The notes under the pieces: model-generated
The model's input: only the letters and a program-made list of their open reading frames with translations
Told to the model about the DNA's origin: nothing
Databases searched by the model: none
Translations under genes and position numbers: made by a program
Assembly (NCBI RefSeq): GCF_023078455.1
Contig: NZ_CP095740.1
Span: forward strand, 62,001-126,000
Direction of reading: 5' to 3'
DNA: 64,000 bases
Origin: Luteibacter aegosomatis
Lineage (GTDB): Bacteria; Pseudomonadota; Gammaproteobacteria; Xanthomonadales; Rhodanobacteraceae
Shown here: positions 29,039 through 36,617 of the stretch, piece by piece
How the letters are laid out: each line of letters opens with the position of its first letter
Numbering within the stretch: the stretch's first letter is position 1

Positions 29039-29733
29039 GCGCGCTGCCGCCGCAGCGGCGGATCCGCTGGACCCAGGCCTACCGCATCGTACCCAGCCGC
29101 TTCCCGCCGGTGGGGCTGTTCGATCGCATCGCCGATCCGGGTGACATCGACGCGGTGATGGCCGTCGAATCCCTCACCAACCCGCGCCTGCGCGACGAGA
29201 TGGGCGCGCTCAGCCTCGTGCCGCCGTCACGGCGCGTCTCGGGCCCGGGCACGACGCCGATCATGGCCGCCTTCGCCCACATTCCGCCCGAAGGCAGCCG
29301 TTTCTCCGATGGCCATTGGGGGGTGTTCTACGCGGCGCACAGCATCCCCACCGCCATCGAGGAGACGGTATTCCATCGCGAGGCCTTCCTGGCCGCGACG
29401 AAGGAGCCGCCCACCGACGTGCAGGTGCGTTGCTACAAGACCGCCGTCAGCGCGAGGCTGCACGACATCCGCGGCGGCTGGGGCGCCGAACACGATCCGG
29501 ATTCGTACGCCGCGAGCGTGCGGCTGGCGCGCAGCCTCCGCGACGACGGCTCCAACGGCATCGTCTACGACAGCGCGCGGCATCCCGGCGGCGAATGCGT
29601 GGCGGCGTTCTACCCCGATGTCGTGGCGCCCTGCGTGCAGGCCGAGCACTTCATCTATCGCTGGAACGGCAAGCGCATCGAGGCGGTGCTCAAGGTCACC
29701 GCGGTGGAGCGTGGTTTGCCCCCGAAAGCCTGA
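29035..29733 (+). CDS. RES-domain toxin (NAD+-degrading)
   Basis: 232 residues. RES domain named for conserved Arg-Glu-Ser: RF at 89-90 followed by GHWGVFYAAHSIPTAIEE (Glu109/Glu110), and Ser180 in GIVYDSARHPGGEC. Characterised members deplete cellular NAD+ by phosphorolysis or hydrolysis, arresting growth until the antitoxin is restored. Paired with the upstream antitoxin in the standard order antitoxin-toxin. All key residues are present, so the toxin looks functional. Confidence 0.92.
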   Translation: MSALPPQRRIRWTQAYRIVPSRFPPVGLFDRIADPGDIDAVMAVESLTNPRLRDEMGALSLVPPSRRVSGPGTTPIMAAFAHIPPEGSRFSDGHWGVFYAAHSIPTAIEETVFHREAFLAATKEPPTDVQVRCYKTAVSARLHDIRGGWGAEHDPDSYAASVRLARSLRDDGSNGIVYDSARHPGGECVAAFYPDVVAPCVQAEHFIYRWNGKRIEAVLKVTAVERGLPPKA

Positions 29734-29751: not shown

Positions 29752-30459
29752 ATGAAACGTCCGATCCTCGCCCTCGTTCTTCTCGGCCTCGCCTTCGGCG
29801 CCGCCGCCCGCGACAACGACCACGCCCGCTGGGAAAGCGACATCCAGGCCTTCGAGGCCGCCGACAAGACCCGCCCGCCACCGGAGCACGCGGTGCTCTT
29901 CGTGGGCAGCTCGTCGATCCGCATGTGGAGCTCGCTGGCCTCAGACTTTCCGGCGTACCGCACGATCAATCGCGGTTTCGGCGGCTCGGACATGGACGAC
30001 GCCACCGCCTTCGCCGACCGCATCGTGAAGCCCTACCACCCGGTCGCGATCGTGGTCTATGCCGGAGACAACGACCTGGAAGGCGGCGACAGCCCGGCGA
30101 CGGTACGCGACGACTTCGCCGCCTTCGTGGCCAAGGTGCGCAAGGACGAACCCGACGTGCCGATCGCCTTCATCTCGATCAAGCCGAGCGTGGCCCGCGC
30201 GAACCTGCTGGCCCAGGTCGCCGAAGCCAACCGACTGATCCGCGACTGGTCGATGCACCAGAAAGGCGTGGCCTTTCTCGACGTCGCGCCCGCCATGCTC
30301 GATAAGAACGGTCAGCCCCGGCCGGATTTGTTCATCGGGGACGGTCTGCACATGAACCCGAAAGGCTACGCGCTATGGGTCGCCCAGGTGCGCCCATGGC
30401 TGGCCGACCATGCGACGGGCGCCGAAGTTAAACAGACCCCAAACACGACCGCCAAGTGA
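29752..30459 (+). CDS. Exported SGNH/GDSL-type hydrolase
   Basis: 235 residues. Signal peptide MKRPILALVLLGLAFGAAA. SGNH blocks: nucleophile Ser in VLFVGSSSIRMW, Gly in RGFGGSDMDD, Asn in YAGDNDLEGG, and the Asp/His pair in FIGDGLHMNPKGYALW. Periplasmic esterase or acetylhydrolase acting on lipids or carbohydrate acetyl groups. It begins 18 bp after the RES gene but is not a usual member of that module. Same strand as the sRNA that follows. Confidence 0.9.
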   Translation: MKRPILALVLLGLAFGAAARDNDHARWESDIQAFEAADKTRPPPEHAVLFVGSSSIRMWSSLASDFPAYRTINRGFGGSDMDDATAFADRIVKPYHPVAIVVYAGDNDLEGGDSPATVRDDFAAFVAKVRKDEPDVPIAFISIKPSVARANLLAQVAEANRLIRDWSMHQKGVAFLDVAPAMLDKNGQPRPDLFIGDGLHMNPKGYALWVAQVRPWLADHATGAEVKQTPNTTAK

Positions 30460-30463
30460 TACG

Positions 30464-30491
30464 GGAACTTCACGGCTCCGCCCTTATCTAA
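30464..30491 (+). promoter_or_regulatory. Sigma-E (RpoE)-like promoter upstream of sRNA candidate
   Basis: GGAACTT (30464-30470), a 16-bp spacer, then TCTAA (30487-30491). This matches the established RpoE envelope-stress consensus (GGAACTT, 15-16 bp, GTC/TCTGA-like). It starts 5 bp after the SGNH hydrolase stop, and no ORF of real quality follows, so it should drive the non-coding RNA. Predicted transcription start is near 30497. Confidence 0.62.
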
Positions 30492-30496
30492 GTATT

Positions 30497-30632
30497 CGAT
30501 CGCCGAGAGGCGACCTGTTGGCAAACAGGCCGAACCATTCGCCTGGTTGTCCCGGGTCCCGCCATTTCCCCTGATGGCCTGGACCCGACGCGACCCCGGC
30601 AGCTCCTCCCCTGGCTGCCGGGGTTTTATTTT
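30497..30632 (+). ncRNA. Candidate five-hairpin trans-acting sRNA with CCCC loops
   Basis: About 136 nt from the predicted start to the end of a T-tract. Consecutive hairpins: TCGCC-GAGA-GGCGA (30500-30513); CCTGTT-GGCA-AACAGG (30514-30529); AACCA-TTCGCC-TGGTT (30533-30548); CGGGTCC + GCCAT around TTCCCCTG (30553-30587); and a terminator hairpin (30594-30623). The loops of the last two contain the same TCCCCTG, complementary to Shine-Dalgarno-like CAGGGGA. C-rich loops recall the Xanthomonas sRNA sX13, but sequence homology was not tested. Perfect stems in series with a promoter and terminator make a real RNA likely. Confidence 0.68.
30594..30632 (+). terminator. Rho-independent terminator of the sRNA
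   Basis: Stem CCCCGGCAGC (30594-30603) with GCTGCCGGGG (30614-30623), a 10-nt loop TCCTCCCCTG, then TTTTATTTT. All elements of a strong intrinsic terminator are present; it is 135 bp beyond the nearest coding stop. Confidence 0.88.
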
Positions 30633-30669: not shown

Positions 30670-30827
30670 GGGTGGGAGCGGACCCTGTCCGCGAACCCTC
30701 AGCCTGTCCCGCATACGAATGAGGCCATGCGGTGATCGGGCGAGCGGTAAAAACCCGCTCGATCACTACACAGCCTCATTCGCGATAGCCACCCGCGAGG
30801 GTTCGCGGACAGGGTCCGCTCCCACCC
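30670..30827. repeat. 158-bp nested palindrome (REP-type cruciform)
   Basis: Outer arms 30670-30699 and 30798-30827 are perfectly complementary over 30 bp (GGGTGGGAGCGGACCCTGTC then CGCGAACCCT). Inside, CGAATGAGGC (30716-30725) pairs with GCCTCATTCG (30773-30782). Innermost, GTGATCG...GAGCGG pairs with CCGCTCGATCAC around TAAAAA. The whole block can fold on itself. The head GGGTGGGAGCSGA is shared with the repeats at 23.9 and 26.7 kb, while the tail differs, indicating a mosaic repeat family. No ORF here is credible. Confidence 0.87.
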
Positions 30828-31150: not shown

Positions 31151-32038
31151 TTAGTTGTCCGCGCCGGTGGCGAAGCCCTCGCGGGTGCCGATCTGGAACA
31201 CCTTGTCGCTCGGAAGCACGTCCGCGGCCGACACCGGCATGCCTTCGGCCAGTCTGGCGTAGATCGGCGTGAAATCGGGGCCGGTGGCGTCGAACAGCTG
31301 CTGGAAGTCGTCGATCACGAAGTAGGTCTGCTGGAAGGTATCGATGCGGTACCTGGTATTCATCACCCGCTCCAGGTCGAACCCGATGCGGTTAGGCGCC
31401 TTCGAATCGATGGAGTAGATCGATTCGCCCTTCGAGCTGACGATGCCGGCACCGTAGATGCGCAGGCCCGCGTCGGTGCGGATCAGGCCGAACTCCACCG
31501 TGTACCAGTACAGGCGCGTGAGGTTCATCAGCGCTTCCGGGCCGATGGCGTGGGCTTTCATGCCGCCCTTGCCGTAGGCCTGCATGTAATCGGCGAACAC
31601 CGGATTGAGCAGCAGCGGCACATGGCCGAACAGGTCGTGGAACAGGTCCGGCTCGGACAGGTAGTCCAGCTGTTCGGGCTTGCGGATCCACCAGCTCACC
31701 GGAAAGCGACGGTTGGCCAGGTGGTCGAAGAACACCTCGTCGGGCAGCAGGCCTTCCACGGCCACGATGGTCCAGCCGGTGGCCTTGCCCAGCACCTCGT
31801 TGAGGTCGTCGAAGCGCGGGATGCCGCCTTCGCCCATGCCGAAGGCATCCAGGCCGTCGAGAAACTCCTGGCAGGCATAGGCCGGCAACAACTCGCGCTG
31901 GCGCCGGTACAGGGTGTCCCAGACCTCATGGTCGGTCTTCGTATAGCTCGCCCACGGCTGCTCCACGGTGCCGGTCGCGTAGACGGGCACGTATCCGCGG
32001 TCGGTCTGCTGATGTTCGACGCGGCGGGGGGTGTCCAT
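31151..32038 (-). CDS. phhA: Phenylalanine 4-monooxygenase (phenylalanine hydroxylase)
   Basis: 295 residues, the compact bacterial form without a regulatory domain. Iron ligands are all present: His134 and His139 in DLFHDLFGHVPLL and Glu182 in YWYTVEFGLIRTDAG. Converts phenylalanine to tyrosine with tetrahydropterin and oxygen, in the cytoplasm. Divergent from an Lrp-type regulator, its probable activator. No phhB (pterin dehydratase) is adjacent in this window. Confidence 0.96.
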   Translation of the reverse strand: MDTPRRVEHQQTDRGYVPVYATGTVEQPWASYTKTDHEVWDTLYRRQRELLPAYACQEFLDGLDAFGMGEGGIPRFDDLNEVLGKATGWTIVAVEGLLPDEVFFDHLANRRFPVSWWIRKPEQLDYLSEPDLFHDLFGHVPLLLNPVFADYMQAYGKGGMKAHAIGPEALMNLTRLYWYTVEFGLIRTDAGLRIYGAGIVSSKGESIYSIDSKAPNRIGFDLERVMNTRYRIDTFQQTYFVIDDFQQLFDATGPDFTPIYARLAEGMPVSAADVLPSDKVFQIGTREGFATGADN

Positions 32039-36129: not shown

Positions 36130-36152
36130 TTCGCTGGCCCGGGGGACGACGC

Positions 36153-36617
36153 ATGCGGGAAGACGGTCCCTCGGGGCTCGGTGACGACCACGAGGCGGTG
36201 GATCCGCGACCCGGAACGGCGATGCCGTCCTGGATCGACGACGTTCGCCGCCTCGGCGTCGGCCTGAAGAACCTGTTCGGCGCCCAGCTGAAGCTGGCGC
36301 TGGCGGAGATCGGGCTCGCGCGCAGCGGCATCGTCATGATGCTGTTCATGGGGTTGGCGGCCATCGTGTTCGCCGTGGCGCTGGGATTCACGCTGCTGGC
36401 CCTGGCCGGCTGGGGCCTGGCGCAGTGGTTCGGCTCGTGGGCATGGGCGCTGACGGCGCTGGCCGGCCTTCAGTTGATCCTGCTGGTGCTGTCGATCCTG
36501 GTATTCCGCCGGGGCATGCACTGGCTTACCCTTCCCGCCACGCGTGCCGAACTCGCCACCCTGGCGAGGGAAGCGGCGAAACGGGGCAGGGCGGAAGGCG
36601 AGCGCGCCGAGGACTAG
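36153..36617 (+). CDS. DUF1469/YqjE-like (phage-holin-superfamily) membrane protein
   Basis: 154 residues. Soluble N-terminus, then two hydrophobic hairpins (IVMMLFMGLAAIVFAVALGF and WALTALAGLQLILLVLSILV) and a basic tail. The family is annotated phage holin superfamily III by fold, but the context is the chromosomal yqjD-yqjE-yqjK type cluster, not prophage. Three bases separate it from the next gene. Confidence 0.83.
   Translation: MREDGPSGLGDDHEAVDPRPGTAMPSWIDDVRRLGVGLKNLFGAQLKLALAEIGLARSGIVMMLFMGLAAIVFAVALGFTLLALAGWGLAQWFGSWAWALTALAGLQLILLVLSILVFRRGMHWLTLPATRAELATLAREAAKRGRAEGERAED

What the first reader, a model, noticed from the sequence alone, without database searches (positions are those of the whole stretch)
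30464..30632. Candidate envelope-stress small RNA: five serial hairpins, twin UCCCCUG loops, sigma-E-like promoter
Seen: GGAACTT-N16-TCTAA immediately after the SGNH gene, five perfect short hairpins in a row, and a strong terminator; the last two loops share TCCCCTG, complementary to a CAGGGGA motif resembling a Shine-Dalgarno region. Known: RpoE drives sRNAs (MicA, RybB, MicL) in enterobacteria, and C-rich loop sRNAs such as sX13 act in Xanthomonas. Inferred: an RpoE-regulated trans-acting repressor of mRNAs with CAGGGGA near the start codon. No coding feature explains this conservation-worthy structure.
Basis: partly seen in the sequence, partly recalled or inferred. Interest (0 to 1): 0.78.

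Follow-up and report, generated by a model that had tools for sequence, protein, structure and literature searches.

The report
Stress-promoter small RNA with C-rich loops
A soil bacterium and its relatives carry a conserved, apparently unnamed regulatory RNA of about 130 letters, probably switched on by the cell-envelope stress regulator and shaped to grip the start regions of messages, much like a known Xanthomonas RNA.

Summary
The finding holds up: window 30464-30632 is a real small-RNA gene of a family that reaches no Rfam threshold. The promoter GGAACTT-N16-TCTAA is present as described. GAACTT-N16-TCTNA occurs only twice in the 4.76-Mb Luteibacter genome: here and in front of rpoE itself. 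In 75 of 82 relatives' copies GAAC-N18-[AT]CTA[AT] stands at a fixed distance from hairpin 1. The RNA folds into four conserved hairpins, not five. Compensatory changes are abundant: 15 of 40 pairs in Luteibacter, 30 of 40 family-wide. The TCCCCTG loop motifs of hairpin 3 and the terminator are invariant in Luteibacter. The gene sits beside different genes in different genera (SGNH/phhA, pncB, recN) and is tandemly triplicated in two Luteibacter species, each copy with its own promoter. It therefore behaves as an independent trans-acting unit. Its closest relative is sX13, perhaps an ancient paralogue: the same genome has a separate sX13-like locus with a similar promoter. The CAGGGGA-target idea was tested and not confirmed: CCAGGGGA sites were not clearly more export-linked or conserved than a control 8-mer. 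Transcription, RpoE dependence and targets need the bench.

The parts
30464..30470 (+). -35 element GGAACTT of a sigma-E-type promoter
   Evidence: GAACTT conserved in 27 of 27 Luteibacter copies; TGAACTT before rpoE
30487..30491 (+). -10 element TCTAA, spacer exactly 16 nt
   Evidence: TCTA[AT] with N16 in 27 of 27 Luteibacter copies; [AT]CTA[AT] with N16 in 75 of 82 named copies
30497..30632 (+). predicted small RNA, about 130-135 nt; the start is inferred from the -10, the end from the terminator
   Evidence: R1 model 145.9 bits (this copy is in the model); z -6.54; covariation
30500..30513 (+). hairpin 1, TCGCC-GAGA-GGCGA, the sequence-conserved 5' hairpin of the family
   Evidence: motif in 34 of 36 model-found copies outside Luteibacter
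30520..30551 (+). hairpin 2, sequence hypervariable, held by compensatory changes
   Evidence: 5 of 8 pairs with both-side changes in Luteibacter, 8 of 8 family-wide
30553..30587 (+). hairpin 3 with C-rich loop; TCCCCTG at 30567-30573
   Evidence: 100% of cells paired in Luteibacter
30592..30632 (+). intrinsic terminator; loop CCTCCCCT (30605-30612), TCCCCTG at 30607-30613, then T-tract
   Evidence: TCCCCTGG in 34 of 36 model-found copies outside Luteibacter
29752..30459 (+). upstream neighbour: GDSL/SGNH hydrolase gene, ends 5 nt before the -35
   Evidence: PF13472 68.3 bits; upstream in 23 of 23 Luteibacter genomes
31151..32038 (-). downstream convergent neighbour: phenylalanine 4-monooxygenase (phhA)
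   Evidence: TIGR01267 372.3 bits; downstream in 23 of 23 Luteibacter genomes

Best explanation
An independent small-RNA gene transcribed by RNA polymerase carrying RpoE (or a close ECF sigma) when the envelope is stressed. The ~130-nt product is a chain of four tight hairpins ending in an intrinsic terminator. It most likely acts in trans: the exposed C-rich loops (UCCCCU in hairpin 3; CCUCCCCU in the terminator, which resembles the anti-Shine-Dalgarno end of 16S rRNA as recalled) pair with G-rich ribosome-binding or start regions of mRNAs and block translation, as published for sX13 of Xanthomonas. It may be a diverged paralogue of sX13, giving Rhodanobacteraceae a second stress-driven C-rich-loop RNA. 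Shown here by computation: conserved RNA structure, terminator, promoter geometry shared with rpoE, no fixed neighbour, gene duplication. Inferred: transcription, RpoE dependence, loop-mRNA pairing, repression, paralogy with sX13. Unknown: the targets.
For: Covariation in A1: 98.2% of cells paired, 15 pairs and 49 cells with both-side changes against 5.9 and 12.2 in shuffles (0 of 500), 1-3 pairs when slid. In A2: 30 of 40 pairs and 534 cells against 22.6 and 143.5 (0 of 500). Promoter: 27 of 27 Luteibacter copies, including both tandem triplets, keep GAACTT-N16-TCTA[AT] while the spacer varies; 75 of 82 named copies, against 0-5 hits per other spacer of 12-23 nt in the same 1.25 Mb. GAACTT-N16-TCTNA occurs twice in the genome, the other before rpoE. 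rpoE loci of the family: 14 of 22 strict N16, 6 looser, 2 none. Independence: pncB motif downstream in 60 of 80 named loci, phhA in 11, other or unreadable in 9; RecN gene upstream in L112 and L119. sX13 link: RF02232 32.6 bits; R1 scores three sX13-type loci at 33-47 bits; C-rich-loop action published for sX13 (PMC3771888, abstract and passages).
Against: No transcript data. rpoE promoters end in TCT[GC]A while most sRNA promoters outside Luteibacter end in ACTAA, so another ECF sigma is possible (13 matches to the RpoE model in the own genome). In A1 one of five covariation measures, further pair types, is not above shuffles (28 against 26.3; 117 of 500 reached it). The target test was negative: 16 of 26 CCAGGGGA starts versus 9 of 22 control starts encode hydrophobic N-termini, and 4 versus 2 cross-genome pairs were found. 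sX13 similarity rests mainly on hairpin 3 and the terminator and could be convergence. 9 of 36 model-found copies outside Luteibacter lack the strict N16 promoter (3 of them have N17).
Confidence: 0.66

Rival explanations
1. The RNA is a cis-acting leader or attenuator (for pncB in most genera), relocated or decayed in Luteibacter.
For: In 60 of 80 named loci a pncB N-terminal motif follows on the same strand, 93-379 nt after the end of the search pattern (profile-confirmed on one, L105).
Against: In Luteibacter the next gene, phhA, is convergent. In L112 and L119 the RNA follows recN. Tandem triplets with their own promoters and terminators exist. The terminator helix is the best-kept long helix (98.2% of cells paired in A2). 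I made no specific search for an antiterminator.
Confidence: 0.1
2. The RNA is real and trans-acting but driven by an ECF sigma other than RpoE, with a different signal.
For: 13 RpoE-model matches in the genome; the -10 is ACTAA in 59 of 75 promoters, unlike rpoE's own TCT[GC]A.
Against: Same -35 core and same N16 spacer as rpoE; in Luteibacter the -10 is TCTAA, one base from rpoE's TCTCA; only these two sites fit in the genome.
Confidence: 0.2
3. It is not a base-pairing regulator but acts through a protein: the repeated hairpins titrate an RNA-binding protein (CsrB-like).
For: Serial hairpins with a repeated loop motif and tandem gene copies look like a titrating RNA.
Against: The conserved loops are C-rich, not the GGA motif of CsrA sponges (recalled); only two of four loops share the motif; sX13 loops act by pairing (PMC3771888, passages).
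Confidence: 0.06
4. Merely a long terminator/3' end of the SGNH gene, conserved as a transcript end.
For: It follows the SGNH stop codon directly in Luteibacter.
Against: Own conserved promoter after the stop codon; the same RNA lies at other genes in other genera; hairpins 1-3 show compensatory changes of their own.
Confidence: 0.02

Closest known systems
sX13 (RF02232), Xanthomonas
   Same: Chain of tight hairpins with C-rich loops and an intrinsic terminator. The own genome's sX13-like locus has TTTCCCCTGG and CTCCCCTGG loops. A similar NAAC-N18-[AT]CT[AT][AT] promoter stands at 15 of 25 sX13-model loci of this family, 0 of 5 from other families (two of those have N17).
   Different: Different locus (the sX13-type locus lies by uvrD, with polA upstream in L045; both RNAs coexist in this genome), a different, sequence-conserved hairpin 1, hairpin 2 not C-rich, 32.6 bits against a 50-bit threshold.
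alpha-r14 / 'cuckoo' RNAs, CcsR1-4 of alphaproteobacteria (RF02344)
   Same: C-rich anti-Shine-Dalgarno-like motif (recalled), clusters of homologous copies, alternative-sigma control (RpoHI/RpoHII for CcsR, PMC10253847, passages).
   Different: 33.7 bits against 58.8; CcsRs are processed from one ccaF1-CcsR transcript, here each tandem copy has its own promoter and terminator; other bacterial class, other sigma.
MicA, RybB, MicL, VrrA (sigma-E small RNAs of enterobacteria and Vibrio)
   Same: Sigma-E-type promoter, short RNA with intrinsic terminator (features of the known RNAs recalled).
   Different: None reaches an Rfam threshold here; RybB gives 20.6 bits against 40, over the terminator only. 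Those use mostly unpaired 5' seeds (recalled); here the candidate seeds are hairpin loops. Outer-membrane targets not shown.

Membership tests
sX13 (RF02232) | Covariance-model score at or above the Rfam threshold (50 bits) | tested here: not met
   32.6 bits; even the genome's own sX13-type locus scores 39.2
sX13 (RF02232) | Gene beside polA | tested here: not met
   Window RNA lies between SGNH and phhA genes; the sX13-type locus is separate, by uvrD, with polA upstream of its counterpart L045
sX13 (RF02232) | C-rich (4C/5C) apical loops on stable stems (three in sX13) | tested here: inconclusive
   Met for two of four loops, invariant in the Luteibacter alignment; sX13 has three such loops
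sX13 (RF02232) | Represses mRNAs with G-rich motifs near the start, Hfq-independently | not testable with these tools
   Published for sX13 only (PMC3771888, passages); the sequence-only target test here was negative
RpoE-dependent small RNAs | Promoter matching that of rpoE | tested here: met
   the -10 differs (TCTAA or ACTAA against TCT[GC]A)
RpoE-dependent small RNAs | Transcription lost in an rpoE mutant and induced by envelope stress | not testable with these tools
   No expression data
alpha-r14 / cuckoo RNA | Rfam score at threshold (58.8 bits) | tested here: not met
   33.7 bits

The most novel reading that the evidence does not exclude
The RNA arm of the envelope-stress response in Rhodanobacteraceae, and perhaps beyond it in Lysobacterales, is built from a duplicating family of C-rich-loop RNAs, sX13 included: several RpoE-driven, loop-seeded, anti-Shine-Dalgarno-like repressors that take the place of the MicA/RybB/MicL set of enterobacteria and whose dose is tuned by tandem duplication.
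Probability: 0.37. Interest if true: 0.72.

Novelty: new variant of a known kind. Interest (0 to 1): 0.56.

Why it matters
It gives a bacterial family a candidate RNA output of its envelope-stress regulator, ready for direct test. It also suggests, from the promoter alone, that the sX13-type RNA of this family may belong to the same regulon; the passages I saw of the sX13 paper name no regulator that drives it, and RpoE has 0 occurrences in its text. The fixed order of promoter, hairpins and loop motif in genomes where the gene lies at different places makes it a clean case of an RNA regulator evolving by duplication and relocation.

Tried and rejected
Target prediction by seed: CCAGGGGA within 0-22 nt of ATG gave 54 rows in the own genome against 5 for the reversed pattern, but the near-control CCAGGAGA gave 57 against 7, so the excess is not specific to the seed. 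Among starts that look real by codon usage, 16 of 26 (9 of 12, 3 of 8, 4 of 6 in G000, G004, G015) versus 9 of 22 control (4 of 10, 4 of 6, 1 of 6) have a hydrophobic N-terminus; the window's training genes have 12 of 46. The rule for 'hydrophobic' was set after I had seen the own-genome list; that list alone looked striking and did not replicate in G004. Cross-genome pairs: test 4 (ihf-like, RHS-like, ABC ATPase, small membrane protein; first three names by eye), control 2. All listed sites were read except in the G004 control (39 of 48 places).

Rejected: microRNA-family hits (they lie on the long palindrome at 30672-30825); plasmid or phage copies (no match in those two collections); a coding function (two of three frames are open through the window RNA, but the 25 copies counted vary by single bases, 131-136 nt); sigma-70 promoter.

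Limits: the 27 Luteibacter copies of A1 were collected with the promoter pattern itself, but one search lists the same number, 27, of class-type matches above 120 bits in those genomes without using the promoter. The A2 set was picked by a pattern that demands hairpin 1 and TCCCCTGG, so invariance of those two elements there is by construction; the freer figures are those, from 40 regions I chose among the R1 matches. R1 was searched in the family only, so absence elsewhere rests on the strict pattern. In one search the query labelled RES was translated in a wrong frame and was not used. The promoter pattern was too strict; replace it. In one search the minus-strand loci were aligned unturned; one search replaces it.

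Full report
WHAT IS THERE. Directly after the stop codon of a GDSL/SGNH hydrolase gene (PF13472) stands GGAACTT (30464-30470), 16 nt, TCTAA (30487-30491). A few bases after the -10 begins a 130-nt stretch that folds into four hairpins with MFE -71.7 kcal/mol, z -6.54, 0 of 200 shuffles as stable. The last hairpin is an intrinsic terminator. TCCCCTG lies at the loops of hairpin 3 and of the terminator.

IT IS A CONSERVED STRUCTURED RNA. In a search of 61 genomes, 32 matched: all 23 of the genus (the own included; best matches 81-100% identical) and 9 of 38 others, those over the 3' half only. The SGNH gene is upstream and phhA downstream in 23 of 23. In the 27-copy alignment A1 the four helices pair in 98.2% of cells; 15 of 40 pairs and 49 cells show changes on both sides, against 5.9 and 12.2 in shuffles (0 of 500 as high) and 1-3 pairs when partners are slid; the number of further pair types is not above shuffles (28 against 26.3). 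Hairpin 2 is hypervariable in sequence yet still paired in 92.3% of cells.

IT IS A FAMILY, NOT IN RFAM. Nothing in the window reaches an Rfam threshold. In permissive mode the stretch gives ar14 33.7 bits (threshold 58.8) and sX13 32.6 (threshold 50). A model built from A1 (R1) matches 164 of 233 genomes of the family, 20 of 26 genera, at E <= 0.01; some of these matches are sX13-type loci. I fetched 40 regions outside the genus and found 42 matches: 36 have the hairpin-1 type of this RNA and 6 the sX13 type. Of the 36, 34 keep the hairpin-1 motif, 34 the TCCCCTGG of the terminator loop, 33 a CCCC run in the loop-3 zone and 27 the strict N16 promoter, 3 more with N17. A pattern scan of the collection of 84,980 species genomes gave 85 stretches, of which 80 were returned; their titles name Luteibacter, Dyella, Rhodanobacter, Frateuria, Fulvimonas, Oleiagrimonas, an unplaced Rhodanobacteraceae bacterium, or metagenome bins. 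Aligned to R1, 84 matches (one cut off) pair in 94.9% of cells, with 30 of 40 pairs and 534 cells changed on both sides against 22.6 and 143.5 in shuffles (0 of 500). This alignment was fitted to the model, which favours its structure.

THE PROMOTER. GAACTT-N16-TCTA[AT] is present in 27 of 27 Luteibacter copies although the spacer and flanks vary. The copies were collected with that pattern, but one search lists the same number of strong matches without it. In the named set, 75 of 82 copies with enough upstream sequence have GAAC-NN-N16-[AT]CTA[AT], beginning 34-36 nt before hairpin 1; 4 more have N17 and 3 neither. In the 1.25 Mb of both strands of those loci every other spacer from 12 to 23 gives 0-5 hits, N16 gives 75. 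In the own genome GAACTT-N{15,17}-TCTNA occurs five times (reversed-pattern control four), and the N16 form only twice: here and just upstream of rpoE (TIGR02939, 322 bits). Among 22 rpoE loci of the family 14 have the strict N16 form, 6 a looser one, 2 (G033, G119) none; one further genome (G036) gave no rpoE match at E <= 1e-60. The -10 of rpoE is TCT[GC]A in the 14, that of most sRNA copies outside Luteibacter ACTAA (59 of 75), so RpoE is the likely but not the proven sigma factor. That this is the promoter type of RpoE in other gammaproteobacteria is recalled.

WHERE IT SITS. In 60 of 80 named loci a pncB N-terminal motif follows on the same strand (nicotinate phosphoribosyltransferase, TIGR01514, profile-checked on L105); in 11 phhA is the convergent neighbour; 9 are other sites or run off the held DNA. 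In two genomes of the Oleiagrimonas group it follows recN (L112, L119). A cis-acting leader would hardly survive such moves; a trans-acting RNA would.

RELATION TO sX13. The own genome has a separate best sX13 match (39.2 bits, under the threshold) before a UvrD-type helicase gene; at its counterpart L045 DNA polymerase I stands upstream. That RNA has TTTCCCCTGG and CTCCCCTGG loops. R1 scores three such loci at 33-47 bits, with hairpin 3 and the terminator aligned best. Of 30 sX13-model loci, 15 have NAAC-N18-[AT]CT[AT][AT] in the 85 nt around their start, against 23 of 5000 random windows; these are 15 of 25 in the family and 0 of 5 outside it, where two have N17. The common layout (promoter, short gap, two hairpins, UUCCCCUG hairpin, UCCCCUGG terminator) suggests paralogy; convergence is not excluded. 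In Xanthomonas sX13 acts through its C-rich loops on G-rich motifs near start codons, without Hfq, and rises in high salt, at 37 C and in the minimal medium MMA (PMC3771888; abstract and passages read).

TARGETS. Numbers of genomic rows were alike (54 and 57 in the own genome). Real-looking starts with a hydrophobic N-terminus were 16 of 26 versus 9 of 22, and orthologous pairs 4 versus 2 (the G004 control was read at 39 of 48 places). This is no convincing signal. The targets remain unknown.

PRIOR WORK. Searches for Luteibacter, Rhodanobacter, Dyella with small RNA (15 of 37 papers listed), Xanthomonas with RpoE and sRNA (15 of 67), sX13 with Xanthomonas (15 of 25), sX13 with sigma factors (10 of 123), other Lysobacterales with sX13 (10 of 88) and C-rich loop with RpoE (3 of 3) showed no title or abstract start that describes this RNA. 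Only listings were seen for these, apart from passages of PMC3771888, PMC10253847 and PMC6085468. The library lacks most subscription journals.

VERDICT. A genuine small-RNA family, uncatalogued as far as these searches show, with a sigma-E-type promoter and sX13-like C-rich loops; new as a family, a variant of a known kind by mechanism.

Noticed in passing
window 30672-30825: Perfect 29-bp inverted repeat (GTGGGAGCGGACCCTGTCCGCGAACCCTC) at the ends of a ~154-bp stretch just downstream of the small RNA, REP/MITE-like; no other copy in the window at up to 3 mismatches.
   Followed up: partly
L054 1501-1618 and L032-L061: sX13-type loci of the family carry a promoter of the same geometry (NAAC-N18-[AT]CT[AT][AT]), 15 of 25 in the family, 0 of 5 outside: sX13 itself may be sigma-E driven here.
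   Followed up: partly
L023, L024, L127: Tandem triplets of the RNA in G020, G015 and, in another genus, G028 (one G028 copy is weak, 23.3 bits, and lacks promoter and loop motif).
   Followed up: partly
window 36130-36155: G-rich site CCGGGGGACGACGCATG at the start of a small membrane-protein gene (PF07332 below cut-off; YqjE-like as recalled); the similar genes in G004 and G015 have CCAGGGGA there: a possible target.
   Followed up: partly
window 29317-29730: RES-domain protein (PF08808), perhaps the toxin-like half of an Xre/RES pair with the gene upstream (recalled, partner not tested).
   Followed up: no
L167 / G140: A metagenome bin titled Candidatus Eremiobacteraeota carries the RNA but is placed in the window's family by the genome tool: probably a mislabelled or mixed bin.
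   Followed up: no
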